DNA from: Terriglobia bacterium
GTDB lineage: Bacteria > Acidobacteriota > Terriglobia > Bryobacterales > Bryobacteraceae
NCBI GenBank assembly: GCA_021325175.1
Contig: JAJPHS010000050.1
Location: 1-56,209 of the forward strand
Direction of reading: 5' to 3'
Length of the DNA stretch: 56,209 nucleotides
The first letter of the stretch is position 1. Each line of letters starts with the position of its first letter. The translations under genes and the position numbers were made by a program. Shown one piece after another: positions 11,977 to 50,531 of this stretch. The notes under the pieces were generated by a model that saw only the letters and a list, made by a program, of their open reading frames with translations, was not told where the DNA came from and ran no database searches.

Positions 11977-14331
11977 ATGATCTGGCGAGCCGTTTTGTGC
12001 GCCATCGCCGCCGGCGCGATTTACGCGCAGCCTCCGGCGATTTTTTATTCGGATCTGGAGAGCGGTCCGGCGGGCGCCATTGTGACGATTTATGGAAAAC
12101 GTTTCGCCTCCAGCGGCACGATCACGGCGGGCGGCGCGGCGCCGGCGTCCATTTTTTCCTGGTCGGATCGCAAAATTTCATTTCAACTCGGCGCGGGGGC
12201 GGCGACCGGCGCGATCACGGTTCAGAACGGCGCGGGGACCTCGAACGCGGTTCCGTTCGCCATTCGCCCCGGCCGGATCTACTTCGTTTCACCGGGCGGA
12301 AGCGATAACAATCCGGGCGATTTTTCCGCGCCTTGGCGGACCATTCTTCACGCGCGGGATGAGGTTTCGGCGGGCGACATCGTTTATCTGATGGATGGCG
12401 TCGCGCAGACGGGGGACGACGACGGAGGATTCAACGCGTGTTTCACGATCGACTCGATTTCAGGCGCGCCGGGCGCTCCCATCGCCTTCGTCGCTTATCC
12501 GGGCGCGACGGCGACGATCGGAAACGTGAACAGCTCGGGCTGCGATAGCGGGATTCGCAGCGCGGGAAATGGAGAATCGCATTGGGTCTTCGCCGGACTT
12601 GTTTTGCGCGGCGGCACGGAGGCGATGGCGATCGCGCAAGGCTCGGATTGGCGCGTCGTCGCAAACGATCTGTCGTGTCCCAATGGAAATGACGAATCGG
12701 GGTGCCTGGCGACGGAGCAAAGCAGCAACTGGAAATTTCTCGGCAACACGGTTCACGACACCGGGGCGGCGGATGCGACGGCCGAATACCAGGGCGTTTA
12801 TTTTTCGACCGACAGCAACCATATCGAGATCGGCTGGAACACGATCTACAACGTTCATGGATGCCGCGGAATTCAGATTCACTCCTCGCCGCTCGGCGAC
12901 GGCGGCGCGGACGATCCGACCGGTTTCAACCAGTACGACATTCAGATTCACGACAACCTGATACACGATACGCAGTGCGACGGCATCATTCTGGCCACGG
13001 TGGATCCTTCGCGCGGCGCGGTTCAGGTCTATAACAACGTGATTTACAACGCGGGAAAAGGGCCGAATAATCCCGAAAAGAGCGGAAGCTGGAGCTGCAT
13101 CTGCGTTCCCGGATACACCAACAACGGTCCGGAAGGCGGAGGATCCGTTCAGGTGTTCAACAATACGATGTACAACTGCGGATCGTTCGCCAATCCTCCG
13201 TACGCCGATGCGAGCGCGGCGGTCATCAACGGTGGAGGCAACGGAAACCTGACGGTGCGAATGACCAACAATATCGCCGATCAGCCGTCCTCGACGCCTG
13301 CGCCTTATGTGGTGGTCTACGATCCCATCAGCGGCGATGCGTGCGGAAGCGGGCAGAACTGCAACGGCGTTCAAGGGTCGAACAATTTGTTTTTCGGCGG
13401 CGGGGGTCCGCCGGCCAACGCGAATCTCACGCAGAGCTTGAACGCGAATCCGCAGTTTGTCAACGCGAGCCAGTTCGATTTTCACCTGATGGCCGGCAGC
13501 CCGGCGGCTTCGGGCGGAATCACCGAACCGCAGACAACCGATTTCGACGGCATTTCCCTGCCCCAAGGCGCGTCGTATCCGATCGGCGCGTATGCGATTT
13601 ATAGCGGCGCCGCTGCTCCACGGATCAGTTTAAGCTCCATCGCGAGCGCGGCCGGCGGTCCCGCGCGCGCCATCGCTCCGGGAGAGATTGTCACGATTGC
13701 GGGCGGCGGGCTGGGTCCTGCGTCGCCGGCTGCCTTCAGCCTCGATCCGGCGACCGGCGGCATTGCCTCCACGCTCGACGGCACGCAGATTTTTTTTGGC
13801 GCGATCGCGGCGCCGGTTCTGTGGACGTCGGCGGCGCAGGTGCAGGCGATGGCGCCGTTCGAGATTGCCGGACAATCGCAGGTCGCGGTAACGGCGTCGT
13901 TTCAATCCGCGCAGTCGGCTCCGATGACGGTGAGCGTCGCCGCGGCGGCGCCGGGGATTTTCACGATCGACGGCAGCGGCAGCGGATCGGCGGCGGCGCT
14001 GAATCAGGATGGAAGCGCGAACAGCGCGGCCAATCCCGCAGCGGCGGGCTCGGTGATCACGATTTTTTTCACCGGAGGCGGCCAGACGAATCCACCGGGC
14101 GCAACCGGAGCGGTGAGCGCGGCCCCGGCCCCCTTGCTCGGCTCGATGACGGCGGCGGTGGGCGGAAAAACGGCGGCGATCCTGTACAGCGGAGCGGCGC
14201 CGGGGCTGGTCAGCGGAGTGCAGCAGATGAATCTCCAACTCGCCTCTGATACGCCATCGGGCGCGCAGCCGATCACGATTTCGGCCGCGAGCATCGCCAG
14301 CCCGGCGGGTCCGACCATCGCGGTCCGTTAA
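11977..14331 (+). CDS. Secreted IPT/TIG plus right-handed beta-helix protein with Solibacter-type C-terminal domain
   Basis: 784-residue secreted protein. It has a signal peptide (about 1-18, ending YAQ), an IPT/TIG immunoglobulin-like domain (about 20-95), a long right-handed parallel beta-helix (about 97-530) with NN/DN-rich coils such as GVYFSTDSNHIEIGWN, HDTQCDGIILATVDPS and VYNNVIYNAGKGPNNPE, and a C-terminal domain (about 550-784) matching the TIGR03437-type pattern (PGEIVTIAGGGLGP, MAPFEIAGQ, VITIFFTGGGQTNPPGA). TTG 11974 is an alternative start. It is one of three paralogues in the locus (also at 31324 and 37226). Beta-helix proteins of this kind often bind or cleave polysaccharide, but no catalytic residues can be assigned, so the role in EPS processing or adhesion is inference. 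Confidence 0.88.
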   Translation: MIWRAVLCAIAAGAIYAQPPAIFYSDLESGPAGAIVTIYGKRFASSGTITAGGAAPASIFSWSDRKISFQLGAGAATGAITVQNGAGTSNAVPFAIRPGRIYFVSPGGSDNNPGDFSAPWRTILHARDEVSAGDIVYLMDGVAQTGDDDGGFNACFTIDSISGAPGAPIAFVAYPGATATIGNVNSSGCDSGIRSAGNGESHWVFAGLVLRGGTEAMAIAQGSDWRVVANDLSCPNGNDESGCLATEQSSNWKFLGNTVHDTGAADATAEYQGVYFSTDSNHIEIGWNTIYNVHGCRGIQIHSSPLGDGGADDPTGFNQYDIQIHDNLIHDTQCDGIILATVDPSRGAVQVYNNVIYNAGKGPNNPEKSGSWSCICVPGYTNNGPEGGGSVQVFNNTMYNCGSFANPPYADASAAVINGGGNGNLTVRMTNNIADQPSSTPAPYVVVYDPISGDACGSGQNCNGVQGSNNLFFGGGGPPANANLTQSLNANPQFVNASQFDFHLMAGSPAASGGITEPQTTDFDGISLPQGASYPIGAYAIYSGAAAPRISLSSIASAAGGPARAIAPGEIVTIAGGGLGPASPAAFSLDPATGGIASTLDGTQIFFGAIAAPVLWTSAAQVQAMAPFEIAGQSQVAVTASFQSAQSAPMTVSVAAAAPGIFTIDGSGSGSAAALNQDGSANSAANPAAAGSVITIFFTGGGQTNPPGATGAVSAAPAPLLGSMTAAVGGKTAAILYSGAAPGLVSGVQQMNLQLASDTPSGAQPITISAASIASPAGPTIAVR

Positions 14332-14346
14332 TGGCAGCCGGAATGC
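14332..14346 (+). promoter_or_regulatory. Sigma-54-type (-24/-12) promoter candidate before the EPS export genes
   Basis: TGGCAGCCGGAATGC matches TGGCAC-N5-TTGC at 8 of 10 positions, with the invariant GG (14333-14334) and GC (14345-14346) at the correct 12-base offset. It lies just upstream of the SLBB export gene, whose ATGs are at 14364 and 14379. A sigma-54 activator gene lies at the other end of the locus (43438-44832). Confidence 0.5.
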
Positions 14347-14363
14347 TTTTGTAGGCCATCGCT

Positions 14364-14993
14364 ATGCTTTCCAGAAAAATGACTCGCGTGATCGTGTTGG
14401 TTGGAATTGCGGGATTGACGGTTTCGGCGCAGCGGAAAATGATGCCGGATGGCGCGGCTTCCGCATCGGCGGCGGCGACGGCGCCGCGTCCTTCGGCAAA
14501 CGCGCCGTGGCCATATCGGATCGGCCCCGGCGACGTGTTGCAGATCAACGTTTATAAAGAACCGGAAGCATCGCTGGCGTCCGTGGTGGTTCGCTCCGAT
14601 GGAATGGTGGCGCTTCCGCTGATCAAGGAGATTCGCGCCAGCGGGCTCACTCCCGCGGAGCTGGAGCAGCAGATTACCGCCGCGCTCAATCGCATCATCC
14701 GCGACGCCGACGCGACGGTGCTGGTGCGCGAGATCCACAGCGAAAAGATTTACGTGATCGGCGCGGTGCGAAAGGAGGGTCCGATCACGCTGCAAACTCC
14801 GCTGACCGTCCTTCAGGCCATCTCCGAAGCCGGCGGATTGACCGATTATGCCAAGAAAAGCCGCATTTACGTGCTGCGGCGCGAGCGCGACGCGGAAACG
14901 AAAATCCGCATCGATTATCCGGCGGCGCTGAGCGGAAGCCGGCCGGATCAGAACATCCTGCTGCATCCTGGCGACACGCTGGTGGTCCCCTAG
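14364..14993 (+). CDS. Polysaccharide export protein (Wza/EpsE type, SLBB)
   Basis: 209-residue periplasmic/outer-membrane export component. After an N-terminal signal segment comes the poly-export domain opening with YRIGPGDVLQINVYKEPEAS (about residues 49-68), then RSDGMVALPLIKEI, LTPAELEQQI and an SLBB-type region (VIGAVRKEGPI, ISEAGGL, ILLHPGDTLVVP). No lipobox cysteine is visible, unlike Wza. ATG 14379 would give a tidier signal peptide (MTRVIVLVGIAGLTVSAQ) and a more sensible leader behind the sigma-54-like promoter, so the start is uncertain by five codons. It is the first gene of the export block. Confidence 0.92.
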   Translation: MLSRKMTRVIVLVGIAGLTVSAQRKMMPDGAASASAAATAPRPSANAPWPYRIGPGDVLQINVYKEPEASLASVVVRSDGMVALPLIKEIRASGLTPAELEQQITAALNRIIRDADATVLVREIHSEKIYVIGAVRKEGPITLQTPLTVLQAISEAGGLTDYAKKSRIYVLRRERDAETKIRIDYPAALSGSRPDQNILLHPGDTLVVP

Positions 14994-15005
14994 CGGGCGA
15001 AGCCG

Positions 15006-16325
15006 ATGCACAATAAAGTTGCGATTTTCTGTCTGGCCGCCGCGATTTTGCCTTGCGGCGGCCAGAATCTGCTCGAATCGACTCCGCTGGTCGGCCCGCT
15101 GGCCGATGGTTTCCACATCTATCAGATGATGCTTTCGTTCGAATACACGTCGCTGGTGGGCGGGCTGAACGCGTCGGCTCCATCGGCGCTCAACGTGGGT
15201 CCGGATTATACCGGCTGGGCGGGGGGCGAGTTCGCCTACACGCGAAATCGCGCGCGCACGCATTTCAGCATTCTTTACGAGCCGCTGTACTTTCGCAGTT
15301 TTCGTTTTTCATCGCTGCATGGGCTGAATCAGGTGCTGCATATGGAAATGACGCGCCAGGTGACGCCGCAGTGGGCGCTCAACACGGGATTGTCGGCGGA
15401 GGATATCACGATTGAGCAGTTCCTCTTTTCAACTCCGCAGGCCGCAGGGCCCGTGCTTTCCTCCGATCCGAATGAGCAGGCTCCGCCCTCGGGGCAAACG
15501 GGATTGACGGCGATTCAGGCGATTATCTATGGCCAGCGAGTGCTCACCATATCCGGAAGGCTGGGCGTCACCTACAAACCAACATCGAGATTCCGGGTCA
15601 CCTTCGACGGCGAGGGGTCGGATTCGCGCGCGCGTCCGGACCAAAACCAGCCGGTTCCGCAAGCCGCGCTCGAAACGGAGATGGAGACGGCGGAGCTTTC
15701 GTTGGCATACTCGACCAGCCCGCGATCGGAGGCCGCCCTTCGCGCGGACACGCAGCGGCTGCGAAGCTTCGGCGACACGTATACGATCGAGTCGCTCGGC
15801 CTGGGTTTCACCCACAGATTCACGCCGCATCTGATCGGATCGGTGCTGGCGGGCGGCGGAGTCATCACGCCGCTCCGCGCCGGCCCGCTGGTTTCTGGGG
15901 GATCGTCGTGGATCGGCGAAGCGCGTCTCGGCTACGAAGGCCGGGAAAATGTTTTGTCGGCGAACTACAGCCACTTTGCCGGAGATTTCTACGGATTGGG
16001 AGCGACTTCCACCACAACCTTCGCCGGAAACTGGAGCTGGCGCCGATTGGGCCTCAACTGGGGATTGCACGCCTACGCGGCCGAGCAGATCCTCAGCGGC
16101 GGCCTCGCCGCGGGAACCAGGATGTGGCAGGCGAGCGGCGGCGTTTCGCGCGCGGCGGGACGGCAGCTCGTGGTGAGTCTTGATTATTCGTATCTGACGG
16201 GATCGTTTTCTCCCGTTCTGCTGGCGCAAAACGTGAATGGGCAGGCGGCGCGGCTTACGTTTTCCTGGATTCCGTTTCTGCGCGACGCGCCGCCGCTCGG
16301 ATTGCCGCGGGTGGGCGCGCAATAA
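15006..16325 (+). CDS. Predicted outer-membrane beta-barrel protein of the EPS locus
   Basis: 439-residue protein with a signal peptide (about 1-20, ending PCGG). It then shows alternating aromatic/hydrophobic strands such as THFSILYEPLYFRSF, RFRVTFDGEGSDS, LSLAYSTSPRSEAALRA, NVLSANYSHFAG and LVVSLDYSYLTGS, typical of a transmembrane barrel. Exosortase-type EPS loci carry an outer-membrane barrel gene beside the SLBB and Wzz genes, and position and length fit that role. No specific family is recognised with certainty. The stop is followed at once by short competing hairpins (16326-16349). Confidence 0.7.
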   Translation: MHNKVAIFCLAAAILPCGGQNLLESTPLVGPLADGFHIYQMMLSFEYTSLVGGLNASAPSALNVGPDYTGWAGGEFAYTRNRARTHFSILYEPLYFRSFRFSSLHGLNQVLHMEMTRQVTPQWALNTGLSAEDITIEQFLFSTPQAAGPVLSSDPNEQAPPSGQTGLTAIQAIIYGQRVLTISGRLGVTYKPTSRFRVTFDGEGSDSRARPDQNQPVPQAALETEMETAELSLAYSTSPRSEAALRADTQRLRSFGDTYTIESLGLGFTHRFTPHLIGSVLAGGGVITPLRAGPLVSGGSSWIGEARLGYEGRENVLSANYSHFAGDFYGLGATSTTTFAGNWSWRRLGLNWGLHAYAAEQILSGGLAAGTRMWQASGGVSRAAGRQLVVSLDYSYLTGSFSPVLLAQNVNGQAARLTFSWIPFLRDAPPLGLPRVGAQ

Positions 16326-16446
16326 TCCCAAAAAATGGGACGGATCCCAATTTGTGTCGCAAAGTCGAAGGCACGCGCTTGTTAAACCGTGCGGCTATGG
16401 TGGATCGGGGGTGGAAAGAAGCTTGCATGAGGGAGTGCAAACGCTT
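16326..16446. other. 121-base gap inside the EPS operon with short competing hairpins
   Basis: TCCCA (16326-16330), TGGGA (16336-16340) and TCCCA (16345-16349) can pair in two mutually exclusive ways. GCACG (16371-16375) pairs with CGTGC (16388-16392). No convincing promoter was found; GGGAG at 16431-16435 is the ribosome-binding site of the next gene. Confidence 0.3.
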
Positions 16447-18009
16447 ATGAGTCCGACGCGCGCGGCGCCGCAGTTTTTACCGCTGTCGATCCTGCGGATG
16501 CTTTGCAAGCAAATCGTGCCGGCCTGCGCGCTGGCGCTGGTGCTGGCGGGCGCGGCGGCGTGGGTGATTTCGCGCATGCCCGATATTTATCGCGCCGAAG
16601 CGGTGGTGCTGGTGGATTCGCAAAAGATCCCGGAGAAGTTCGTCTCCTCCACGGTGCAGGTTTCCTTGCAGGACAATCTGAACGCCATCAAGCAGCAGGT
16701 TTTGAGCGCGAACCGCATCCAAGAAATCGCCGAAGAGTTTCATCTCTATGAGCAGGAGCGCGGCGTAAAGACGATCGACGAGGTGATCGAGCGCGTGCGC
16801 CGGGACCTATCGGTGGAGCTGGAACGCGGCCTGGGCGGCGGGCGATCCGGCGCGTTTCGGATCACCTTCGACGCAGCGAGCCCGAAGCTTGCCGCCGGCG
16901 TGGTGAATCGCGTCACGCAGTTGTTCATCCGCGAAAATTTCCGCACGCGCGAGCAACGCGCCGAAGGCACCTCGGAGTTTATCGAGCGCGAATTGAAGAT
17001 CGCCAAACAGCGGCTGGACCAGCAGGAAGCGAGCCTGAGCGAATACAAGCGCCGATGGGTGGGCGAGCTGCCGCAGCAGGAGCCGGCGCTGCTGGGAGCA
17101 TTGAACCGCCTGCAAACGGAGCTGATCGGCAATCAGGAAGCGATCGATCGCGCGCAGCAGAACAGCGTGATGCTGGAAAATACGCTGCGCTTCGCGGAAT
17201 CGTCCTTGGCCACGGCGACGCGCGCGCTCACGCCGCCGCCGGCGCCTGCCGATCCCGTGGCGCGGCGCGATCCTGGTCCGGCCGCGCCTCCGCCGCCTTC
17301 GGCCGCCTTGCGCGCGCAGCTTGAGCAGGCGCGGCTCCGCTATTACGAGGATCATCCCGAAGTCAAGCGATTAAGGCTGGAGCTTGACCGCGCGCTCGCC
17401 GAGGAAGCACGCCTCGCCGGGCCGCTGAAGCCTGCCGAGACCGAAACCCGCGCACCCGATCCGCCCAAAGTCGAGGTTCCGGTTTCGGTCCAGCAGGCCG
17501 CCGTGGATGTCAAGCGCGAGCAGGAACGGATCGCGATGACCAAGGGCCAGATCGAAATGGTCAACGAGGAGATCGCGCGGCGGACGCGGGAACGCGAGAA
17601 AATTCTGGATCAGATCCGCGCCTATCAGAGCCGCGTGGAGACGCTGCCGATCCGGGAGCAGCAACTGGCGGCGCTGACCCGGGACTACGAAACCTCCAAA
17701 GCGAACTATCATTCGCTGCTGGATAAAAAGATCAACGCCTCCATGGCGACCGACATGGAGCGCAGCGACCAATCGGAGCGATTCACCATCGCCGATCCGG
17801 CGCGCGTGCCGGCCAAGCCGGTGAAACCGCGGCGCCTGCTGCTTTATCCGGCAGCGGCGCTCGGGGCATTTGCGTTCAGCCTAGCTCTGTTTTTCGGGCT
17901 CGAGCTGAAAAAAAACCTGTTTCTCGGCGAATGGGAGCTGCCGCCGGATTTGCGCGTGCTCGGCCGCATCGCCACGATTCAGACGCCGCTGCGAGCGGAG
18001 ACGCACTAG
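16447..18009 (+). CDS. Wzz/GumC-type polysaccharide chain-length determinant
   Basis: 520-residue inner-membrane co-polymerase. A membrane helix near residues 20-42 is followed by a Wzz domain (IYRAEAVVLVDSQKIP, SSTVQVSLQDNLN). A long periplasmic coiled coil (about 170-430) is interrupted by a Pro/Ala-rich insert near 260-285. The GNVR-like end LTRDYETSKANYHSLLDKKI and FTIADPARVPAKPVKPRR precede the second membrane helix. The start at ATG 16447 has GGGAG 11 bases upstream. There is no fused kinase; a separate BY-kinase gene lies two genes downstream, the arrangement of XrtA-type EPS systems. It controls chain length and export. Confidence 0.92.
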   Translation: MSPTRAAPQFLPLSILRMLCKQIVPACALALVLAGAAAWVISRMPDIYRAEAVVLVDSQKIPEKFVSSTVQVSLQDNLNAIKQQVLSANRIQEIAEEFHLYEQERGVKTIDEVIERVRRDLSVELERGLGGGRSGAFRITFDAASPKLAAGVVNRVTQLFIRENFRTREQRAEGTSEFIERELKIAKQRLDQQEASLSEYKRRWVGELPQQEPALLGALNRLQTELIGNQEAIDRAQQNSVMLENTLRFAESSLATATRALTPPPAPADPVARRDPGPAAPPPPSAALRAQLEQARLRYYEDHPEVKRLRLELDRALAEEARLAGPLKPAETETRAPDPPKVEVPVSVQQAAVDVKREQERIAMTKGQIEMVNEEIARRTREREKILDQIRAYQSRVETLPIREQQLAALTRDYETSKANYHSLLDKKINASMATDMERSDQSERFTIADPARVPAKPVKPRRLLLYPAAALGAFAFSLALFFGLELKKNLFLGEWELPPDLRVLGRIATIQTPLRAETH

Positions 18010-18010
18010 G

Positions 18011-18949
18011 ATGTACGAATCCCACTTCGGTTTGCGCAACTGCCCGTTTGAAATGACGCCCGATCCGGCGGCGATTTTTCTCACCGACGCTCATCGCGAA
18101 GCGCTCGCCGGCCTCTCGTATTCGATTCTCAAGCGCAAGGGATTCGTGGTCCTCACCGGAAAAGCCGGCACCGGCAAAACGACGCTGCTGCGCCGGCTGC
18201 TCGAAATGACGCCAGGCGATGATGCCGCGGTGAGCATGGTGTTCAATCCGACGCTCTCCGCCGCCGAATTTCTGGAGCTGCTGCTACTCAATTTCGGAAT
18301 GCGCGATTTTCCGCAAAGCAAAGCGCAGCGGCTTACGATGCTCGAAGCACTGCTGACCCGGTCGCAATCGCGCGGGAAAACGCGCGTGCTGGTGGTGGAT
18401 GAGGCGCACAAGCTGAACCTGGAGGTTCTCGAAGAGATCCGCCTGCTGGCGAACTTCGAAACCAGCGATCACAAGCTGTTGCAGATCGTGCTCGCCGGGC
18501 AGCCCGAGCTGGACGATCTGCTGCGTCTGCCCGAGCTATGGCAGCTCAAGCAACGGATCGCGGTGTGGCTGCGAATCCACTCGCTTTCGCCGGGACAGGT
18601 GATCGAATATATGCAGTATCGCTGGACGCGGCTGGGCGGCGGCGGTCTGCTGCCGTTCACGCCGGACGCGGTGGGGCTGGTCGCGAAGTGCTCGTCGGGA
18701 ATACCGCGCCTGATCAACGCGATCTCCGACAACGCGCTGCTGATCGCCTTCGGAGCCAAGCTCGGCGTTGTGGGCGGCGCCCAGATTCTCGAAGCCGCCA
18801 GGGACTTGGATCTGGTCACCCCGGCGATTGCGGCGCAGGCCGCGCCGCCGATCCGGCTTCAGACGCTTGAACGATATCTTCCCGGCGAGAACAAAGGATT
18901 GTTCGGACGCTGGGCATCGCGAACTTCGCGCGAGGGCGCGCATCGATGA
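18011..18949 (+). CDS. AAA ATPase, ExeA/XrtA-associated type
   Basis: 312-residue P-loop ATPase. It starts MYESHFGLRNCPFEMTPDP, a signature of the ExeA-like family found in EPS loci. Walker A LTGKAGTGKTTLL is near residues 45-57, Walker B RVLVVDEAHKL near 126-136, then LLQIVLAGQPELDDLL and a lid region ending SGIPRLINAISDNALL. Position between the Wzz-type gene and the BY-kinase matches the ATPase of exosortase-associated EPS clusters. The exact role in assembly is unknown. Its stop overlaps the kinase ATG. Confidence 0.9.
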   Translation: MYESHFGLRNCPFEMTPDPAAIFLTDAHREALAGLSYSILKRKGFVVLTGKAGTGKTTLLRRLLEMTPGDDAAVSMVFNPTLSAAEFLELLLLNFGMRDFPQSKAQRLTMLEALLTRSQSRGKTRVLVVDEAHKLNLEVLEEIRLLANFETSDHKLLQIVLAGQPELDDLLRLPELWQLKQRIAVWLRIHSLSPGQVIEYMQYRWTRLGGGGLLPFTPDAVGLVAKCSSGIPRLINAISDNALLIAFGAKLGVVGGAQILEAARDLDLVTPAIAAQAAPPIRLQTLERYLPGENKGLFGRWASRTSREGAHR

Positions 18950-19806
18950 GCCGAATCTACGAAGCATTGAAGCAATCCGGAGAAACAAAGCCCGGCAGCA
19001 TCGTCGAAATGATCGACGGCGCGGAGGCGATCCCGCAGCGGCCCGCACGCGCGGAATGGACGGAGCGAACGGTTTCCGAATACCGGCAAACGGCGCTGCG
19101 GCTTCAGCCCGGCTCGCCGCTGCTTCCCTTCGACGGCTCCGATCCGCGCGCGGCGGAGCAGTACCGGATGCTGCGCACCAATCTTCTTCAGCATCCCACC
19201 GAAGCGAAAATCATCGCGATTTCGAGCGCCGGTCCAGGCGATGGAAAGACGGTCACCGCGATTAATCTGGCGGGAAGCTTCGCGCTCAAGGATGAAGCCC
19301 GGACGATCGTGGTCGATGCCGACCTGCGCCGCGGCTCGATCGCGCCCTCGCTGGGCATCGAGTCGCGGCCCGGCTTGGCCGATGTTCTCCGCGGCGGATG
19401 TCTGCTCGAAGACGCGATCGTAAGTTTCGCGATGATGCCGAATCTGCATGTGCTCGCTTCCGGCGAAGTGTCGGGGAATCCGGCGGAGCTGCTCGATTCG
19501 CCGGGATGCCGCGCCATCATGAGCGAGCTTCGCGCGCGTTTTTCTTTCGTGATTGTGGACACGACGCCGATCAGCGCGGTGGCCGATTTCAAGCTGATCC
19601 AGCAGCTTTCCGATGGCGTCGTTCTGGTGCTGAGGCCGGATCATAGCAATCGCGCGATGGGGTTGAAGGCGGCCTCGCTGATTCCTCGAGAAAAACTTTT
19701 AGGAACCGTGATTAACGATTTCAAAGAATGGGCTTTTTGGAAGAACCGCGACCATTACGAATACTACAGCGCGGGTGCCGGAAAAAATAAACCGGCAAAT
19801 AAATAG
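18946..19806 (+). CDS. BY-kinase (CpsD/CapB-type tyrosine autokinase)
   Basis: 286-residue cytoplasmic ATPase/tyrosine kinase that works with the Wzz-type protein. It begins MSRIYEALKQSG, as kinases of XrtA-type loci do. The EQYRMLRTNL motif is followed by Walker A SAGPGDGKT, Walker A' VVDADLRRG and Walker B FVIVDTTP. The C-terminal end has the tyrosine cluster HYEYYSAG, the probable autophosphorylation site, though short. ATG overlaps the ATPase stop. The cycle of phosphorylation would control polymer length and export. Confidence 0.92.
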   Translation: MSRIYEALKQSGETKPGSIVEMIDGAEAIPQRPARAEWTERTVSEYRQTALRLQPGSPLLPFDGSDPRAAEQYRMLRTNLLQHPTEAKIIAISSAGPGDGKTVTAINLAGSFALKDEARTIVVDADLRRGSIAPSLGIESRPGLADVLRGGCLLEDAIVSFAMMPNLHVLASGEVSGNPAELLDSPGCRAIMSELRARFSFVIVDTTPISAVADFKLIQQLSDGVVLVLRPDHSNRAMGLKAASLIPREKLLGTVINDFKEWAFWKNRDHYEYYSAGAGKNKPANK

Positions 19807-19820
19807 CATTTAGCATCAAC

Positions 19821-19844: not shown

Positions 19845-19857
19845 ACGGGGCGAAGCT

Positions 19858-24911: not shown

Positions 24912-24947
24912 CTCGGTTTTCCCTCATTTTGCACTGCCGTTATTTCC

Positions 24948-26000: not shown

Positions 26001-26009
26001 GGTTTAACG

Positions 26010-31316: not shown

Positions 31317-31323
31317 AAAAACC

Positions 31324-32916: not shown

Positions 32917-32919
32917 CTC

Positions 32920-33849
32920 ATGCCGAGAATCGCCGTCATCATTCCGGCCTACAACGCCGCGCCGTATTTGCCGCTCGCCTTGAACAGCCTGCTTCGCCAG
33001 AGCTATCGCGACTGGGAAGCGGTGGTGGTGGACGATGGCAGCACCGACGGGACCGCCGCGTTGATGCAGGGGCGCGACTGGGGTCCGAAGATCCGTTATC
33101 TGTTCCAGGCGAATCGCGGCGCGGCGGCCGCGCGGAATACGGGCATTCAGGCGTCGGATAGCGATCTGATCGCGCTGCTCGATGCCGACGATATTTTTCT
33201 TGAGCCGCGTCTGGAGCGCGGCGCCGCTGTTCTGGAGGCGGACCGCGGCGCCGGCCTGGTTCACGCCAACATTGCGATGATCGGCTCCTCCGGCGAGTTT
33301 CTTCAATCGCGAAAATTTCCGGAAAAATATCTTTCGGGCAGGATTGCGAGGCATATTTATCGCCGCCGCGCGCGCATCGCGCCATCCACCGTGCTTTTTC
33401 GCCGAGCCTGTGTCGAGCGCGCCGGACTTTTCGACGAGACGCTGCGCGTCAGTGAAGATCGCGACCTGTGGTTCCGCATCGCGCGGCATTACCGGTTCGT
33501 CTATCTGCCGGAGGTGCTGGCGTATTATCGGCGGCTGCCGACATCGCTCACCGGAAAGATCGATCGCGTTGTGGAATATCAGCTCGCTTTTATCGGCAAG
33601 CACCGCGAATCCGGCGTTCGCGGCGCTCTCGATTTTCATCTCGCCTACGGCAGCATTTGCCGCGAAATGGGCGATGCGCTATTCAATGCGCGGGACCGGC
33701 GCGCGGCGCTGGGCTGGTATGGAAAAGCGCTCGCCCATCAACCGAATCTCAAAAATCTTTATATGACGCTCCGCGGCGCGCTCAAATTGGCCGCGTCCGG
33801 AGCGGGAGAAGAACATGCTCACGGCGAGCGTAATCATTCCGACGTTTAA
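32920..33849 (+). CDS. Glycosyltransferase, GT2-type
   Basis: 309-residue GT-A glycosyltransferase. IAVIIPAYNAAPYLPLALNS opens the fold, VVVDDGSTDGT binds nucleotide, and LLDADDIFLEPRL carries the DXD-type metal site (DAD). ATVLF-type acceptor segment SEDRDLWFRIARHYRF matches the ED-motif region. The tail contains a short TPR-like helix pair (DRRAALGWYGKALAHQPNLK). It overlaps the next glycosyltransferase gene by 35 bases. Confidence 0.9.
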   Translation: MPRIAVIIPAYNAAPYLPLALNSLLRQSYRDWEAVVVDDGSTDGTAALMQGRDWGPKIRYLFQANRGAAAARNTGIQASDSDLIALLDADDIFLEPRLERGAAVLEADRGAGLVHANIAMIGSSGEFLQSRKFPEKYLSGRIARHIYRRRARIAPSTVLFRRACVERAGLFDETLRVSEDRDLWFRIARHYRFVYLPEVLAYYRRLPTSLTGKIDRVVEYQLAFIGKHRESGVRGALDFHLAYGSICREMGDALFNARDRRAALGWYGKALAHQPNLKNLYMTLRGALKLAASGAGEEHAHGERNHSDV

Positions 33850-34822
33850 TCGCGCGCATCTCATCCGCCGCGCCTTGGGCTCGGTGCTACCGCAAATCGC
33901 GGCGGAGGACGAGGTGATCGTCGTCGACGACGGATCAAGCGATGCGACCGAAGCCGTGGTCCGGAGTCTCGCTCATCCGCGGGTGCGTTACGTCCGCCAG
34001 GCGAACGCGGGCGCGGGCGCGGCTCGCAATCGCGGAGTTCGCGAATCGCAAGGCGCGCTGGTTGCGTTTCTTGATTCCGATGATGAGTGGCTGCCGGGCA
34101 AGCTCGAATTACAGCGGCGTTTCATGGCGGCCCGCAGCGACGTTCTTTTCTGCTTTACCGATTTTACCCGCGAAATGGGATTTCGCCAGAACCGCTCCAT
34201 CCGCTACTGGAGCGGCGATCCGCGTCCGTGGGCGGAGGTCTTCGGGCCCGCGCAGGCGTACTCGGAGCTGGCGCGGCCGCCCGAGGAAATCGGCGACTGC
34301 GAAACCTACAGCGGCGACATCTACCTGGAAGAGATGCGCCGCAACTACATTCTGACCAGTTGCCTGATGGCGCGCCGCCGCGAGGCCGCCGACGCGCTGC
34401 ACTTCGGCGAATCGCTGCGAACCTTCGAGGATTGGGAGTGCTTCGGCCGGCTTGCCGGGCGCGGGCCGGCGGGATTTCTGAATTGCGAAACGGCGATTCA
34501 GTGGGCCCATGCGGGCCCCAGGCTCACCGATGCCGATTTGTTTGCATGCGCGGAATCGCGGCTCGCGATCCTGGAGCATGTTTGGGGGCGCGACGATGCG
34601 TTTCTGCGGAATCATGGCGATGAATTCCGGCGGCTGGTCCGGCAGCAGACGCTTCTGAAAATTCGCGGATTATTGGTTCTCGGCCGCGCCCGCCAGGCTC
34701 GGCGCGTTCTTCGCCAGGTCGACGGGCCGCCGGCGATCTATCGCGCTCTGTCGCGGCTGCCCGGAGGGCTGCTGGCGCGATTGCTGCGCCTTCGCCGGCG
34801 CCTGCATCGCGATGCCAGATGA
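33815..34822 (+). CDS. Glycosyltransferase, GT2-type
   Basis: 335-residue GT-A glycosyltransferase. SVIIPTFNRAHLIRRALGSV, EVIVVDDGSSDAT and GALVAFLDSDDEWLPGKLEL show the fold and the metal site (DSD). TFEDWECFGRLAGRGP holds the catalytic ED region. GGAGAAG lies 4-5 bases before the ATG, inside the previous gene, supporting this start. The C-terminal helices are Arg/Leu-rich. The donor sugar is unknown. Confidence 0.9.
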   Translation: MLTASVIIPTFNRAHLIRRALGSVLPQIAAEDEVIVVDDGSSDATEAVVRSLAHPRVRYVRQANAGAGAARNRGVRESQGALVAFLDSDDEWLPGKLELQRRFMAARSDVLFCFTDFTREMGFRQNRSIRYWSGDPRPWAEVFGPAQAYSELARPPEEIGDCETYSGDIYLEEMRRNYILTSCLMARRREAADALHFGESLRTFEDWECFGRLAGRGPAGFLNCETAIQWAHAGPRLTDADLFACAESRLAILEHVWGRDDAFLRNHGDEFRRLVRQQTLLKIRGLLVLGRARQARRVLRQVDGPPAIYRALSRLPGGLLARLLRLRRRLHRDAR

Positions 34823-34837
34823 ACTTGTATTCACACA

Positions 34838-36064
34838 ATGTCTACTCCTTCGCAAATCGAAAAATTGCCGGCAGTTCCGGCATCGGCGCCAAACAGCGCG
34901 CGGGTGGAACTGCTCGAAGCCTCGAACGTCGAATCCATTCGCGATGCATGGAACGGGCTTGCGGCGCGCGCCATCGTGCCCAACCCGTTTTATGAACCCT
35001 GGATGGCGCTGCCCGCTTTAAAGCATCTGGCGGAGAAAAGCAAAATCTACTTTCTTCTGATCCACGGACCGGCGAACACTCCGGACAATTTGTGGGGATT
35101 GTTTCCGCTGGAAGTCCGAGCAAAGTGTCTTCATCTGCCGATTCGCGCGTTGTCTTTTTGGCAGCACCAGCACTGCTTTCTGGCCGCGCCGCTGATCGAT
35201 CGCGATCACGCGGCCAAGGCGATCGAGCTTTTCTGGCGGTGGTTCGAAAACAATCCGCTGCGCTGCCGCGTGCTCGATACGAATTATTTTCCCGGTGACG
35301 GGGATCTTCAGCCGTTATGGACGGAGTACGTGATCGGCCGCTGCGCGCTGGCGCTCAACGAACATCCGCGCGGGCTGCAAGACCTCAGCGGCGGATTCGA
35401 GAAATACTCGACTGAAATTTCGAACGATCAGCGGCGCTCCTATCGCCGGCGCGAACGCCATATGGTGGCATTTTCTCCGCCCGAGTACCGGCAGGTGGAG
35501 AGCGCTGACGAGCTCGAGCACTGGATCGATGATTTTCTGCGCCTGGAGGCCAGCGGCTGGAAGGGACGCGCGGGCGGCGGCGCGTTTGCCTTGAATCCGC
35601 GCGAGACCGCATTTTTCCGGGATCTGGCGCGCTCCGCATTCGAGCAGCGCCACGCCTGGTTTTTCTCACTGCGCCTGGCTGGGAAAAACATCGCCATGAT
35701 AGAGACCTTCTTCACCGGTGGCCAGGGCTTTGGTTTCAAGAGCGCCTACGATGAAGAGTATTCGCGATTTTCGCCGGGGGTGAGTCTCCAGATGGAATTT
35801 CTGCGGAGAATTTCGCAAGAGCCCGGCGTCAGTTCCGTCGATACCTGCGCGGCGCCGCGGCATTCCTTGTTCAATGCGTTTTCCAACCGGCGGAGAATCA
35901 TCCGGCGCTCGCTGTACTCGGACGGCTCGGCGGCCGGCGATCTGATCGTTTCGGCGCTGCCGCTGCTGCGCTGGGCGAAACATCGGCTTCGTCCCAACTC
36001 CGTGCCGGATTATCTGCGCCGCTTCACCGCCCGCGCGTCTTTTAATGAACCCGATCACAACTAA
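34838..36064 (+). CDS. BioF2-like (GNAT/FemAB-type) acyltransferase
   Basis: 408-residue protein of the same broad group as the one at 20358. NPFYEPWMALPAL is the usual early motif. SNDQRRSYRRRERHM, FLRLEASGWKGRAGG, FFRDLARSAFEQRHAWFFSLRLAGKNIAMIETFF and GFKSAYDEEYSRFSPGV are the second-half signatures. Two such genes in one locus suggest two different acyl decorations. No ribosome-binding site is obvious before the ATG. The 3' end overlaps the next gene by 20 bases. Confidence 0.86.
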   Translation: MSTPSQIEKLPAVPASAPNSARVELLEASNVESIRDAWNGLAARAIVPNPFYEPWMALPALKHLAEKSKIYFLLIHGPANTPDNLWGLFPLEVRAKCLHLPIRALSFWQHQHCFLAAPLIDRDHAAKAIELFWRWFENNPLRCRVLDTNYFPGDGDLQPLWTEYVIGRCALALNEHPRGLQDLSGGFEKYSTEISNDQRRSYRRRERHMVAFSPPEYRQVESADELEHWIDDFLRLEASGWKGRAGGGAFALNPRETAFFRDLARSAFEQRHAWFFSLRLAGKNIAMIETFFTGGQGFGFKSAYDEEYSRFSPGVSLQMEFLRRISQEPGVSSVDTCAAPRHSLFNAFSNRRRIIRRSLYSDGSAAGDLIVSALPLLRWAKHRLRPNSVPDYLRRFTARASFNEPDHN

Positions 36065-37229
36065 ACCCGGCGGCGATCCGATCCGGATTTTGTACATTAT
36101 CGATACGCTGGGCGGCGAGGGCGGCGCCGAATTGAGTTTGCTGCGCCTGATCCGTCATCTTCCGCCGGAGCGCTTCCGCTGCCGCGTGATTACGTTTCAC
36201 AATCGCAATCCCGAATTCTTGAAGGAATTTCCGTGCCGGGTGGATCACTGGGAGCTCAAGCGAGTCTACGGCTGGCGCGCCGCGGTGGTGGCCGCGCATC
36301 TTCGAAATATCGTGCGGCGGGACCGCATCGATATCGTCCACAGCTTTTTTCCCACCTCGGATTTATGGGCGGCTCCGATCGCGCGGGCCTGCGGCGCGAG
36401 AATTCTCATCTCCAGCCGGCGCGATATGGGAATCGTGCGCGCGGGCAAGCACCGGCTGCTGTATCGCGCGCTGCAAGGAATGTTTGATCAGATTCAGGCC
36501 GTTTCCGAAGCGGTGCGCCAATTCACGATTCAGGCCGACGGCGTGGATCCGGCTCGCGCCGTCACCATTCATAACGGAGTCGAGCCGTGGACGGCTTCCG
36601 TATGCGCGCGAGATCCGAGCCGCGTAAGGATCGCCTGCATCGCCAACTGGCGTCCGGTGAAAGGGATCGATGTGCTGGTTCGCGCGGCGGCAAAAGTCGG
36701 CTCGCGCGACGACCGGGCGCTTTTTTGGATCGCCGGCAATCCGGGAGCGGGCGAGTATCGGCGGGAAGTGGAGTCGCTTTGCCGCTCCCTCGGCGCGGAC
36801 CGGTGGATTCATTTTCTGGGCGCTTCTCCACAGGCGCGGGATTTGCTCGAACGGAGCGATCTTTTCGTTTTGCCGTCGCGCAGCGAAGGGCTTTCAAACG
36901 CGCTGTTGGAAGCGATGCAGAGCGGTCTGGCGTGCGTGGCAAGCGATGCCGGAGGAAACAGCGAGGTGGTGGTGCATGGAACAACGGGGCTGCTGTTTCC
37001 GGCGGGAGACGACAATGCGCTGGCGGAAAAAATTCTCGAGCTGATGGCGAATCCTGCGCGGCGCGAGCGAATGGGCGGGGCCGGACGAAAGCGCGTCGCG
37101 GAACAATTTTCGGTAAAGGCGATGGTCGAGCGCGTGATGACGTCCTATGAAACGCTGCTCGAAAAAAAGGCGGCCGGCGCCCGATCGGGAACCAGCCGCC
37201 GGAAAGTAGGCGATGAATTGGCGCTTTAA
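36045..37229 (+). CDS. Glycosyltransferase, GT4-type
   Basis: 394-residue GT-B glycosyltransferase. ILYIIDTLGGEGGAELSLL is the acceptor-side glycine loop, VTIHNGVEPW the linker, RIACIANWRPVKGIDVLVRAA and FVLPSRSEGLSNALLEAMQSG the donor side with its E-x7-E motif. It is the last + strand gene before the inverted secreted protein gene; the two stop codons overlap within TTAA (37226-37229), leaving no space for a terminator. Confidence 0.9.
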   Translation: MNPITTKPGGDPIRILYIIDTLGGEGGAELSLLRLIRHLPPERFRCRVITFHNRNPEFLKEFPCRVDHWELKRVYGWRAAVVAAHLRNIVRRDRIDIVHSFFPTSDLWAAPIARACGARILISSRRDMGIVRAGKHRLLYRALQGMFDQIQAVSEAVRQFTIQADGVDPARAVTIHNGVEPWTASVCARDPSRVRIACIANWRPVKGIDVLVRAAAKVGSRDDRALFWIAGNPGAGEYRREVESLCRSLGADRWIHFLGASPQARDLLERSDLFVLPSRSEGLSNALLEAMQSGLACVASDAGGNSEVVVHGTTGLLFPAGDDNALAEKILELMANPARRERMGGAGRKRVAEQFSVKAMVERVMTSYETLLEKKAAGARSGTSRRKVGDELAL

Positions 37230-40200
37230 TGAACGGTGATCACCGCGCTTTTCGCCACGAGGATATAGCCGGATTGCGAGATGTAGCGAAGCTCATAATT
37301 GCCGGGCGGCGGCGCGCCGAAGCCGGCCGTCTCTCCACTGGTTTTCCCGTCAGTGGCGATCCACCAGACGGGATTGTCGCTGGTCGCGGATACGGCGTAC
37401 AACCCGATCGCGTCTCCGGCTTTAGCGGCCGGGGCCGTCCAGGAGAAACTTACCGTCTGTCCGGAAGAGATCGAAAGCGAGGAAGGCGTGACGCTGGTTC
37501 CCGCGACTCCGACAGCAATCGGCGAACTGGCCGCCGCGAGGTTCCGCGTGCCTCCGAGGAAGTAGCGGATTTCGTAGAGGCCCGGCGTCGATGGAAGCGT
37601 GAAGTTAAAGCTCCCGCCCAACGCCGATGTGAGCTTTTTACTGGCCAGCGAGTACCAGGCGGGCGCATCCACCGAGCTGAGAACAATGTAGTCGTTCGCC
37701 AGATGATTGGCCGGAGCGGTCCAGCTTACCTTGATCGTCGTACCGGATACGCCGCCCGACACCGAATATACTCCGCCGACGCCGGACGACGAGGACGACG
37801 AGAACGGGGCGAGATTGATGGTTGCGGAAGCCGTCATCGCGGGGCTGTTGGTGGTCGCGATGACGGTCACCGTCTGCGCGCTGGCGATCGCCGCCGGCGC
37901 GGTGTAAAGACCGGATGCCGAGAGCGTGCCGACGTTCGGCGTCATCGACCACGTCACCGGCGCCGACATGCCGGTTTCCGTCGCCTTGAATTGCTGGCTC
38001 TGTCCGGCGCTCAAGCTGACCGATCCAGGCGAGACGGCCAGCGTCGCCGGCTGCGAGGGAGTGCTCGCGGTGAGCGTGATGACAGCGGTCGCCGATTTGG
38101 TATTGTCCGCGACGGAGGTGGCCGTGATAGTGACCATCTGCTGGCTGCTGATCGAGCTGGGCGCCTGATACATGCCGGAACTGGAAAGCGAGCCAACGTT
38201 GGGACTCATGGTCCAGGAAACGCCGTTATTCGTGGTCCCGGTCACCGTGGCGGAAAATTGCTGCGAGCCGGAGGCGCCCAGCGTGACGCTCGCCGGAGTC
38301 ACGGCGATTCCGACCGGAGTGAGATGAATGGTTGCCGTCGCCGACTTAGTGCTATCGGCGGAGGAGGTTGCCGTCACCAGAACGGTCTGAGCTGAAGTGA
38401 CCACCGCGGGCGCCGTGTACAACCCGTTACTCAACGTTCCGACCATTGGATTGAGCGACCAGGAAACGGCGCTGTTCGACGATCCGGTGACGGAGGCGGT
38501 GAATTGCTGCGTCGCGCCGCCATCCAAGGATACCGAAGCGGGATTAAGAGTGACCAAGACCCCGGATGACGGCGTTGTCGAATTATTGGGGAGCGAATAC
38601 GCGCCGATGGGGAATCCCGAGCCTTGCGGCAGCGGGTATCCATCGAAATCGGTTGGGTCGGAGGTCGCCATGCCGCCGGTGGCCGCGGGGCTGCCGGAAT
38701 TCAGGTGAAAATTCGCTTGTGATGCATTTACAAACAAAGGATCGGAATTCACGGAATTTGTAATATTGCTGTTTGCCGGCGCGGGGCCATTTCCATAAAA
38801 AAGATTATGAGATCCGCCGATGCCGTTGCAATTCTGCGAATCGGCGCAGACGCCGCCGGAGCTTCCATAAATTACCAGATACGGCGCGGTGTTGCCGGCC
38901 GGCTGGTCGATGATGTTGTCCTGCATCTGGATGAGCAGGTTCAGGTTACCGCCGCCATTCAGAACTCCGCCGCTCGCCCCGGCGTAGGGCGGATTGGCGA
39001 AGGACCCGCAGTTATAGAACGTGTTGTTATAAACCTGAACGGTTCCCCCGCCCGGCGAGCCCGTATTGGTATAGCCGGGCACGGCGAGACAGCTCCAGGT
39101 GCCGCTATTTTCGGGATTATTCGGACCTTTTCCGGCATTATAAATGATATTGTTATAGACCTGAACGGGTCCCTGTGAGGGATCAATGGTGGCCAGAATA
39201 ATTCCGTCGCATTGCGTATCGTGAATCACGTTGTCGTGGATCTGGATGTCGAACTGATTGTGGCCCGTCGGATCGCTGGCGCCGCCGCCGTTGAGCGGCG
39301 AGGAGTGGAACTGAACGCCGCGGCATCCATGGACGTTGTAGATCGTGTTCCAGCCCATCTCCACGTGATTGCTGTCGGTGGAAAAATAAACGCCGTGATA
39401 CTCCGCGGTGGCATTTGCCGCGCCGGTGTCATGAACCGTGTTTCCGAAAAACTTCCAGTTGCTGCTCTGTTCGGTGGCCATGCAGCCGGATTCGCTGTTG
39501 CCGTTCGGACAGGTCATATCGTTGGCGACCGCGCGCCAATCCGAGCCCGCGGCGATGGCCATCGCCTCCGTGCCGCCGCGGAGCGACAATTCGGCGAACA
39601 CCCAGTGCGATTCGTTTTCGCCCTTGGTGCGGATGCCGCTCGAACAGGCGGATTCATTCACATTGCCGATGGTCGCCGTGGCCCCCGGATATCCCACGAA
39701 GGCGATCGGAGCGCCGGCGGCGCCGGAAATTCCGCCGATCGTGAAGCAGGCGTTCCAGCCTTGCCCGTCGTCCTGGGTTTGCGAAACGCCGTTCATAAGA
39801 TATACGGTGTCGCCCGCTTGAACGCTGTCCCGGGCGTGGGTCACGGTCGCCCACGGCGCGCTGAAGCTGCCGTCATTTCCATCGCTGCCGTTGGTGGCCA
39901 CAAACAGAATCCTTCCGGAGCGAACGGTGAACGGCAGGCCGTTGGAGGTTCCGGCCGCATTTGAAACCACGATGTTGCCGGTGGCTGCGGCGGGGCCGGG
40001 CTGGAACGTGATTTTCGTATCGCTCCAGATGCGATACGCCGCGGCGGCTCCGCCGCCGACCGTTACGATGGAGCTTCCCTGCGAACTGCCGAAGCGCTCG
40101 CCGTAGATCGTCACCCAGACGCCGTTGTTGTTTTCGCCGCCGGAGTTCGGACCGCTTTGCAAGTCCGAATAAAACAGGCGCGGTTGAGCGTGGAGCGTCA

Positions 40201-40270
40201 TCGGGATGCCCGCCGAAAGCGCGAGCGGTATCAATCGAAGTAATAGATTAAGAATACGATTTGTATACAT
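37226..40270 (-). CDS. Large secreted IPT/TIG plus beta-helix protein with Ig-like repeats
   Basis: 1014-residue secreted protein on the opposite strand to the EPS genes. After a signal peptide (about 1-28, ending LHAQ) come an IPT/TIG domain, a beta-helix (about 125-550) closely matching the proteins at 11977 and 31324, and three tandem bacterial Ig-like (Big-type) repeats. The repeats recur as VSLDGGATQQFTASVTG, VTLGASGSQQFSATVTG and VSLSAGQSQQFKATETG (about 570-830). Two further beta-sandwich repeats end in GLYEIRYFLGG and GNYELRYISQSG. It looks like a cell-surface stalked version of the family. AGGAAG lies before the ATG. Adhesin or polysaccharide-active function is inference. Confidence 0.88.
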   Translation of the reverse strand: MYTNRILNLLLRLIPLALSAGIPMTLHAQPRLFYSDLQSGPNSGGENNNGVWVTIYGERFGSSQGSSIVTVGGGAAAAYRIWSDTKITFQPGPAAATGNIVVSNAAGTSNGLPFTVRSGRILFVATNGSDGNDGSFSAPWATVTHARDSVQAGDTVYLMNGVSQTQDDGQGWNACFTIGGISGAAGAPIAFVGYPGATATIGNVNESACSSGIRTKGENESHWVFAELSLRGGTEAMAIAAGSDWRAVANDMTCPNGNSESGCMATEQSSNWKFFGNTVHDTGAANATAEYHGVYFSTDSNHVEMGWNTIYNVHGCRGVQFHSSPLNGGGASDPTGHNQFDIQIHDNVIHDTQCDGIILATIDPSQGPVQVYNNIIYNAGKGPNNPENSGTWSCLAVPGYTNTGSPGGGTVQVYNNTFYNCGSFANPPYAGASGGVLNGGGNLNLLIQMQDNIIDQPAGNTAPYLVIYGSSGGVCADSQNCNGIGGSHNLFYGNGPAPANSNITNSVNSDPLFVNASQANFHLNSGSPAATGGMATSDPTDFDGYPLPQGSGFPIGAYSLPNNSTTPSSGVLVTLNPASVSLDGGATQQFTASVTGSSNSAVSWSLNPMVGTLSNGLYTAPAVVTSAQTVLVTATSSADSTKSATATIHLTPVGIAVTPASVTLGASGSQQFSATVTGTTNNGVSWTMSPNVGSLSSSGMYQAPSSISSQQMVTITATSVADNTKSATAVITLTASTPSQPATLAVSPGSVSLSAGQSQQFKATETGMSAPVTWSMTPNVGTLSASGLYTAPAAIASAQTVTVIATTNSPAMTASATINLAPFSSSSSSGVGGVYSVSGGVSGTTIKVSWTAPANHLANDYIVLSSVDAPAWYSLASKKLTSALGGSFNFTLPSTPGLYEIRYFLGGTRNLAAASSPIAVGVAGTSVTPSSLSISSGQTVSFSWTAPAAKAGDAIGLYAVSATSDNPVWWIATDGKTSGETAGFGAPPPGNYELRYISQSGYILVAKSAVITVH

Positions 40271-50451: not shown

Positions 50452-50462
50452 GAGACCCTTTT

Positions 50463-50482: not shown

Positions 50483-50531
50483 TTTTCGGCTACTTTATCA
50501 AATTTTTTCGACGGTGTGAATCCCTGTTTGC

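What the first reader, a model, noticed from the sequence alone, without database searches (positions are those of the whole stretch)
11977..40270. Three paralogous secreted TIG/beta-helix proteins built into the EPS locus, each with a different C-terminus
Proteins at 11977, 31324 and 37226 share a TIG domain and a beta-helix with near-identical blocks (GVYFSTDSNH, HDTQCDGI, IHSSPL) but end in a Solibacter-type domain, nothing, or Ig repeats. The locus has no classical glycoside hydrolase or lyase. The trio may cut, bind or scaffold the polymer, with C-terminal modules setting location. This is the best candidate for an undescribed system here.
Basis: inference. Interest (0 to 1): 0.75.

Follow-up and report, generated by a model that had tools for sequence, protein, structure and literature searches.

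The report
Tail-swapped secreted beta-helix EPS proteins
An acidobacterium's slime-making gene cluster carries three copies of one secreted, sugar-enzyme-like protein that share a core but have different tails; related bacteria show the same pattern, which suggests one way of trimming their own slime in different places.

Summary
T1 (11977-14331 +), T2 (31324-32916 +) and T3 (37226-40270 -) share a TIG plus beta-helix core (59-71% identical to T1) and end in a TIGR03437 domain, nothing, or an Ig-like array. A search of the genome (94% complete) finds only these three. The core is modelled confidently (pLDDT 93.8) as a pectin-lyase-type helix, nearest PL9 but without a conserved lysine; it has a conserved Tyr/Arg/Gln/His/Asp patch, a six-rung Asn ladder and paired cysteines. 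The family is patchy (25 of 399 genomes of the class) but mostly sits in Wzx/Wzy-type EPS loci: 20 of 26 long loci carry three or more EPS gene classes against 0 of 40 random regions; a second set gave 5 of 12. In 12 of 12 scorable multi-copy loci the copies differ in their end modules, and in three genomes the differing copies are sister sequences. Best reading: enzymes acting on the cell's own matrix (probably a lyase or other depolymerase) whose tails set location, working like RbmB or PlyA/PlyB without belonging to those families. Catalysis, substrate and location are inferred. Epimerase and pure scaffold remain open.

The parts
11977..14331 (+). T1: signal peptide, TIG, beta-helix, Soli_cterm tail; first gene of the EPS gene array
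   Evidence: signal peptide judged by eye
12061..12261 (+). T1 TIG domain
   Evidence: PF01833, residues 30-96
12793..13005 (+). T1 conserved patch region (GVYFSTDSNH to TVD)
13642..14328 (+). T1 C-terminal TIGR03437 domain
   Evidence: residues 557-785
31324..32916 (+). T2: signal peptide, TIG, beta-helix, no tail; 7 bp after wzx, 3 bp before GT2
31423..31635 (+). T2 TIG domain
   Evidence: residues 64-134
32158..32373 (+). T2 conserved patch: core residues 261-332 (Y264, R286, Q289, H291, D315, D324; Cys pair 285/323); core residue 1 is at 31378
37226..40270 (-). T3: signal peptide, TIG, beta-helix, Ig-like array; convergent with GT4c, divergent from a deacetylase gene
   Evidence: coordinates
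39926..40132 (-). T3 TIG domain
39182..39397 (-). T3 conserved patch region
37229..38587 (-). T3 tail: Big_2-like repeats and two C-terminal beta-sandwich-like modules
14364..19806 (+). EPS export/assembly genes: SLBB export protein, possible outer-membrane protein, GNVR chain-length protein, AAA_22 ATPase, tyrosine autokinase
   Evidence: the possible outer-membrane protein has no family hit
19858..20364 (+). UpxY-type antiterminator
   Evidence: 127.1 bits vs cut-off 100
20358..31316 (+). EPS synthesis genes: GNAT/FemAB-like, deacetylase, Wzy_C, GT4, GT2, sugar transferase/epimerase, GT4, Wzx
32920..37229 (+). EPS synthesis genes: GT2, GT2, GNAT/FemAB-like, GT4
40397..42624 (+). polysaccharide deacetylase and nucleotide-sugar dehydrogenase (likely source of a uronic-type sugar)
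   Evidence: TIGR03026 422.1 bits vs 189.8

Best explanation
T1, T2 and T3 are exported enzymes of one family that act on the polysaccharide made by the same locus. The TIG domain and the beta-helix groove hold the chain; a patch (Tyr264, Arg286, Gln289, His291, Asp324, T2 core numbering, placed on sheet PB1 from the strand order) probably cuts it, most likely by beta-elimination at a uronic-type sugar supplied through the locus's nucleotide-sugar dehydrogenase. The copies do the same chemistry in different places: T2 soluble, T1 and T3 held by their tails. Shown: core identity, fold model, patch conservation, EPS linkage, exchange of end modules. Inferred: secretion (signal peptides by eye), catalysis, the lyase mechanism, the substrate, and tails as locators.
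For: The only three members found in the genome all lie in this EPS locus, while 0 of 12 other TIG-domain regions in the genome carry two or more EPS classes. EPS linkage elsewhere: 20 of 26 loci of at least 18 kb vs 0 of 40 random regions with three or more classes, and 5 of 12 further loci. AF2 model pLDDT 93.8, pTM 0.94; best Foldseek hits are rhamnogalacturonan lyase and Pel9A, with GH136, GH28, XylC, PL6, RbmB and AlgG also listed. Patch in 50 members: Y264 48, R286 49, Q289 47, D315 48, H291 41 (8 more Tyr), D324 41 (7 more Asn). The three members without Y264 or R286 are all in loci with no EPS class. Third codon positions have diverged widely while the protein is kept, most strongly around the patch. 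Nucleotide-sugar dehydrogenase in the locus. Deacetylase within 5 kb in 18 of 44 loci, GT4 in 27 of 44.
Against: TM-scores to solved enzymes are at best 0.49 (by query) and 0.60 (by target), and phage tailspike-type helices match too. The helix body matches no PDB sequence below E 0.049. Six of 26 long loci in the first set (L054 two classes, L070 one, L058, L060, L073, L076 none) and seven of 12 in the second (three with two classes, four with none) miss the mark. Four members in loci with at most one EPS class keep the patch (L058, L060:7475, L070:10001, L073:10001), so patch loss and location are only loosely tied. The uronic sugar is inferred from one gene. A matrix scaffold would also conserve a groove.
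Confidence: 0.5

Rival explanations
1. Non-catalytic matrix proteins: the groove and TIG bind the EPS, and the tails cross-link it or hold it to the cell (like V. cholerae RbmA/Bap1 or rhizobial Rap lectins).
For: Tails include Ig-like, BACON, choice-of-anchor D and dockerin modules; two sister members (L060:5291, L073:7492) and L076 have lost patch residues, so some copies may be binders only.
Against: The tailless form (T2 and relatives) has no second domain beyond TIG to cross-link with; the patch is rich in Tyr/Arg/His/Asp and kept in 43 of 50 members as Y,R,Q,[HY],[DN]; the nearest folds are enzymes.
Confidence: 0.2
2. Polymer-tailoring enzymes that do not cut, such as C5-epimerases of a uronic acid (AlgG/AlgE-like), acting during or after export.
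For: AlgG is among the fold hits (4nk6, E 2.1e-3, rank 44); nucleotide-sugar dehydrogenase in the locus; His and Arg in the patch suit either reaction (recalled chemistry).
Against: AlgG ranks below lyases and hydrolases; several copies per locus with different end modules are easier to explain for extracellular trimming (inference).
Confidence: 0.15
3. Secreted enzymes for feeding on foreign (plant or microbial) polysaccharide that merely sit near EPS genes.
For: Acidobacteria degrade plant polymers (recalled); PL9-like fold; some members lie away from EPS genes.
Against: T2 is 7 bp and 3 bp from its EPS neighbours; EPS linkage recurs in other genomes against 0 of 40 random regions.
Confidence: 0.08
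4. Periplasmic quality-control lyases that clear mis-exported polymer (AlgL-like, recalled).
For: Sec-type signal peptides (by eye); T2 embedded in the operon next to wzx.
Against: Long Ig-like and dockerin modules, and an N-terminal array of 11 matched He_PIG stretches in Terriglobus (L074), suggest a place outside the cell.
Confidence: 0.07

Closest known systems
Vibrio cholerae RbmB
   Same: Enzyme with a predicted beta-helix, encoded in its own biofilm gene cluster, that cuts the polymer as a lyase (PMC11637428, passages seen); its structure 9ozl is among the fold hits (E 5.4e-4).
   Different: No RbmB chain appears in profile searches of PDB sequences. That RbmB has no TIG and no differently tailed copies is recalled, not tested.
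Rhizobium leguminosarum PlyA/PlyB glycanases
   Same: Related enzymes that cut the strain's own EPS, one kept on the cell surface and one diffusing, with a C-terminal cadherin-like domain (PMC9298526, passages seen).
   Different: Type I secretion and a cadherin-like domain (same passages); homology to the present family was not tested.
PL9 lyases (Pel9A 1ru4; rhamnogalacturonan lyase 5olr, whose PL9 label is recalled)
   Same: Best fold match (E 2e-8 to 8e-6; TMt 0.55-0.60); N-cap sequence match to 5olq.
   Different: No conserved lysine to serve as the PL9 base; helix body not matched by sequence.
Methanosarcina disaggregatase / PF08480 Disaggr_assoc
   Same: PF08480 passes its cut-off in T1-T3 (23.1, 27.7, 24.0 bits vs 22.6); disaggregatase cuts the producer's own matrix polysaccharide (PMC12369344, passages seen).
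   Different: Marginal scores; 13 of 36 members match at E 0.01; the match may be to generic helix repeats.
XrtA/PEP-CTERM EPS loci
   Same: Export, chain-length, ATPase and kinase proteins match XrtA-type models.
   Different: All below those models' cut-offs; the one exosortase found is on another contig; T1-T3 carry no PEP-CTERM tail (by eye).

Membership tests
Pectin-lyase-like right-handed parallel beta-helix | three strands per coil with Asn ladder | tested here: met
   strand order of the AF2 model read as three per coil; N246, 277, 316, 343, 383, 419, each just before the third strand, are all invariant in 50 sequences
IPT/TIG domain | PF01833 above cut-off | tested here: met
   45.3, 29.8 and 27.8 bits vs 20.9
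PL9 | fold | tested here: inconclusive
   best Foldseek hits but TMq only 0.47-0.49; PF22842 matches T1 at 3-92 of 370 positions
PL9 | catalytic Lys (Lys273 in Pel9A, PMC10992409 passages) | tested here: not met
   no Lys column above 64% in 50 members unweighted (69% weighted); highest in the helix is position 258, Ala in T1-T3; no superposition was possible
PL9 | Asp Ca2+ site | not testable with these tools
   model coordinates not available
RbmB | sequence homology | tested here: not met
   no RbmB chain in profile searches of PDB sequences
RbmB-like function | encoded in own EPS locus | tested here: met
RbmB-like function | cuts own EPS | not testable with these tools
   needs assay
Disaggregatase-related PF08480 | score above cut-off | tested here: inconclusive
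   marginally above in T1-T3; 13 of 36 members at E 0.01 or better
AlgG/AlgE C5-epimerase | catalytic residues of AlgG | not tested
   only a fold hit
Wzx/Wzy-type EPS locus | flippase, polymerase/ligase, export, chain-length and initiating transferase genes | tested here: met
   PF01943, PF04932, PF02563, PF13807, PF02397
XrtA/PEP-CTERM system | curated model cut-offs and exosortase in the locus | tested here: not met

The most novel reading that the evidence does not exclude
A new family of polysaccharide-active enzymes, built into acidobacterial EPS loci as a set: the catalytic core is duplicated and each copy gets a different end module (none, TIGR03437, Ig array, dockerin, choice-of-anchor), so that one reaction is carried out in different shells of the matrix. 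The tails would then be a read-out of matrix geography, and TIGR03437, named by NCBIfam an uncharacterized Solibacter C-terminal domain, would gain a role as a matrix or surface anchor.
Probability: 0.35. Interest if true: 0.7.

Novelty: new variant of a known kind. Interest (0 to 1): 0.5.

Why it matters
Acidobacteria are among the commonest soil bacteria (PMC5259719 abstract start), and how they shape their EPS is little described. A family that mostly sits in EPS loci gives a marker for such loci, a candidate new enzyme family with a ready substrate, and a natural experiment on what the tails do. Named strains carry it (Terriglobus roseus DSM 18391, L075; Terriglobus albidus DSM 26559, L074; Acidobacteriaceae KBS 96, L076 and L079), so it can be tested directly.

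Tried and rejected
PL9 membership: rejected on the missing conserved lysine. A search for true PL9 homologues in 151 genomes of the class at E 1e-30, to align residues, gave nothing, but its controls were silent too, so it says nothing about absence; in the own genome only T1's N-cap matches. Sigma-54 control by the nearby NtrC-type regulator: 14 sites found, 22.7 expected by chance. Recent gene conversion among the copies: no bin of strikingly raised third-position identity in the helix, though no dS was computed. Exosortase sorting: no PEP-CTERM tail by eye, and the exosortase region carries no EPS class. Plasmid carriage of T2 relatives: none at E 1e-5 in that collection. RNA features: no tRNA, no Rfam match at gathering score. 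The first genome-contig scan found nothing; the second, from a 13-member alignment, gave 44 loci. A first, less sensitive pass of the EPS count by tblastn gave 16 of 26 vs 0 of 40; the profile pass reported here came after it. T3's tail model resembles many Ig and cadherin chains at low TM, so it names no partner. Papers: acidobacteria + exopolysaccharide + beta-helix + gene cluster, 0 papers; acidobacteria + exopolysaccharide + Wzy + gene cluster, 3 papers, none on this by listing; Solibacter/TIGR03437/exosortase/exopolysaccharide, 12 of 91 listed, none holding TIGR03437; Terriglobus, 8 of 3,001 listed. The library is open-access only, so absence from print is not established.
Full report
What is there. 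The window is the whole of contig C148 of a 4.26 Mb draft genome, 94.3% complete. An EPS gene array runs from 11977 to 37229 on the + strand: 20 genes with gaps of at most 51 bp, by the starts I chose. It begins with T1 and then holds SLBB export, GNVR chain-length, ATPase, tyrosine kinase, UpxY-type antiterminator, two GNAT/FemAB-like proteins, a deacetylase, Wzy_C, Wzx, sugar transferase/epimerase and several GT2/GT4 genes, with T2 between wzx and a GT2. T3 is convergent with the last gene; a deacetylase and a nucleotide-sugar dehydrogenase follow.

The trio. The cores of T2 and T3 are 59% and 71% identical to T1. A profile of the trio finds just these three in the genome. A TIG search finds 14 TIG matches, two of which are T2 and T3 (it does not list T1's TIG, which hmmscan finds). 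Around the other 12, none has two or more EPS classes and two have one weak class; seven of these 12 regions are cut short by contig ends (10.5-15.6 kb instead of 19.9). Third codon positions of identical residues agree in 33-79% per 50-column bin while amino acids are kept, most strongly in the bins that hold the patch. I read this as old duplications with all three copies under purifying selection; no dS was computed.

Relatives. 36 of 101 related genomes match at E 0.001 or better, many only in part; seven, the own genome included, have matches above 300 bits. With a 13-member alignment 25 of 399 genomes of the class match at E 1e-20, and with 50 members 12 of 396 of the phylum at E 1e-30. 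A scan of named genomes gave 44 loci, most titled Acidobacteria, Terriglobia or Bryobacterales, with contigs labelled Phycisphaerae (L069), Archangiaceae (L083), Pseudomonadota (L077), Nevskia soli (L053) and Candidatus Aquidulcis (L088). Such labels may be wrong; L053 groups with Bryobacterales.

EPS linkage. Profiles seeded with the window's EPS genes were run over the 44 loci and over 40 random 19.9-kb regions from four genomes of one or two contigs that carry the family. At least three EPS classes were found in 25 of 44 loci, 20 of the 26 that are 18 kb or longer, and 0 of 40 controls; two controls had two classes and two more had one. Fisher p is 6e-12, a guide only, as loci are related. 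One control region held a family member by chance and no EPS class. The misses in the first set are L054 (two classes and UGDH), L070 (one), L058, L060, L073 and L076 (none). By the starts of their ORFs alone the neighbours in L060 and L073 look like ordinary cell genes. As the profiles come from this window, EPS loci of another make-up may be undercounted.

Fold and patch. T2's core with 50 sequences is modelled at pLDDT 93.8 and pTM 0.94. Foldseek's best PDB matches are rhamnogalacturonan lyase and, at rank 10, Pel9A; GH136, GH28, XylC, an alginate lyase, GH87, tailspikes, PL6, RbmB and AlgG are also listed, at modest TM-scores; phage beta-helix proteins match likewise. Sequence profiles match the N-cap of the rhamnogalacturonan lyase and XylC and a CGTase domain; the helix body matches nothing below E 0.049. 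In 50 members Y264 is kept in 48, R286 in 49, Q289 in 47, D315 in 48, H291 in 41 (8 have Tyr), D324 in 41 (7 have Asn); 30 have the exact set Y,R,Q,H,D315,D324. Cys 223/232 and 285/323 are each both present in 49 and both absent in one; 363/388 are both present in 42, three have only 388, five neither, much as disulphides would be. R286 and D324 directly follow the 285/323 pair in neighbouring coils, by my reading of sequence and DSSP. No Lys column exceeds 64% unweighted or 69% weighted, against PL9's lysine base (PMC10992409, passages). Y264 or R286 is missing in L060:5291, L073:7492 and L076, all from loci without EPS classes; the first two are sisters, so at most two events. Against a strict link, L058, L070:10001 and the partner copies in L060 and L073 keep the patch in loci with none or one EPS class. 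Three Terriglobus-type copies have Met for Gln289, and L086 has Ala for Asp324.

End modules. By family search: TIGR03437 (L049, L051, two more and T1), BACON_2 before it (L049), Big_2 arrays (T3, L047, L054), Ig_7 (L058), choice-of-anchor D or ASH (L073, L086), dockerin I (L065), and 11 He_PIG stretches at the N-terminus (L074). By reading only: Fn3-like ends, a 20-residue RPNPPTNL-like end, further dockerin- and TIGR03437-like tails, and the He_PIG-like N-termini of L075, L084 and L085. Sixteen loci, the window included, hold at least two members; four were dropped because a member is a fragment (L067, L081, L085, L090). In the other 12 the copies differ: in 10 at the C-terminus, in two (L074, L075) at the N-terminus (partly judged by length and reading; second members of L056 and L070 are distant, about 180-200 bits, and one member each of L053 and L086 is incomplete). 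Loci are related, so 12 is not 12 events. The tree is firmer: T1 and T3 are sisters (100/99) with T2 next (99/82); in L053 a tailless and a TIGR03437-like copy are sisters (98/92); in L054 a TIGR03437 and an Ig-array copy are sisters with weaker support (96/76). End modules therefore seem to change after duplication within a genome.

How it most likely works. Inferred: the proteins leave the cell by Sec, hold the strain's own EPS in the groove, and cut it at a uronic-type residue. RbmB is a precedent for a biofilm-cluster beta-helix lyase (PMC11637428, passages), PlyA/PlyB for two related EPS glycanases of which one stays on the surface and one diffuses (PMC9298526, passages). Characterised acidobacterial EPS (Granulicella) holds glucuronic acid as a minor part (PMC5259719, passages), which permits a lyase but is another organism. 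I put a self-acting EPS enzyme of the cutting kind at 0.5, a binder at 0.2, an epimerase at 0.15.

Verdict. Function is unproven. The kind of system is known; I found no description of this family, its EPS-locus habit or its module exchange in the listings searched.

Noticed in passing
window 19858-20364: UpxY-family antiterminator (NF033644, 127.1 bits vs cut-off 100) inside an acidobacterial EPS array; UpxY is best known from Bacteroides capsule loci (recalled).
   Followed up: no
window 43438-44832 (-): Sigma-54-type regulator beside the EPS locus; NtrC-like genes recur near family members in other genomes, but no excess of sigma-54 sites here.
   Followed up: partly
L065:11501-11704; L078, L079, L089: Dockerin-type-I-like ends on EPS-locus beta-helix proteins (PF00404 5.6e-10 in L065; the others by reading).
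   Followed up: partly
L074:13469-16915; L075; L084; L085: Terriglobus-type members carry a long N-terminal Ig array before the TIG-helix core, at the opposite end from other members' tails (L074: 11 He_PIG stretches; the others by reading).
   Followed up: partly
L060:5219-9127; L073:7420-11656: Pairs of adjacent members outside EPS loci, one with an intact patch and one with Tyr264 and Asp315 lost: possibly an active and an inactive partner.
   Followed up: partly
L061, L062, L064, L067, L071; more loosely L077, L079, L082, L086, L089: A recurring family gene - GT2a - GT4a - deacetylase block in different genomes.
   Followed up: partly
window 47206-50580 (-): Large outer-membrane barrel protein with a carboxypeptidase-regulatory domain (PF25183, E 2.1e-244) just downstream of the EPS locus.
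   Followed up: no
window 9686-11819: A DUF6152 protein and an ORF without Pfam family between the nuo genes and T1; homologues of both occur together in control region L133.
   Followed up: no
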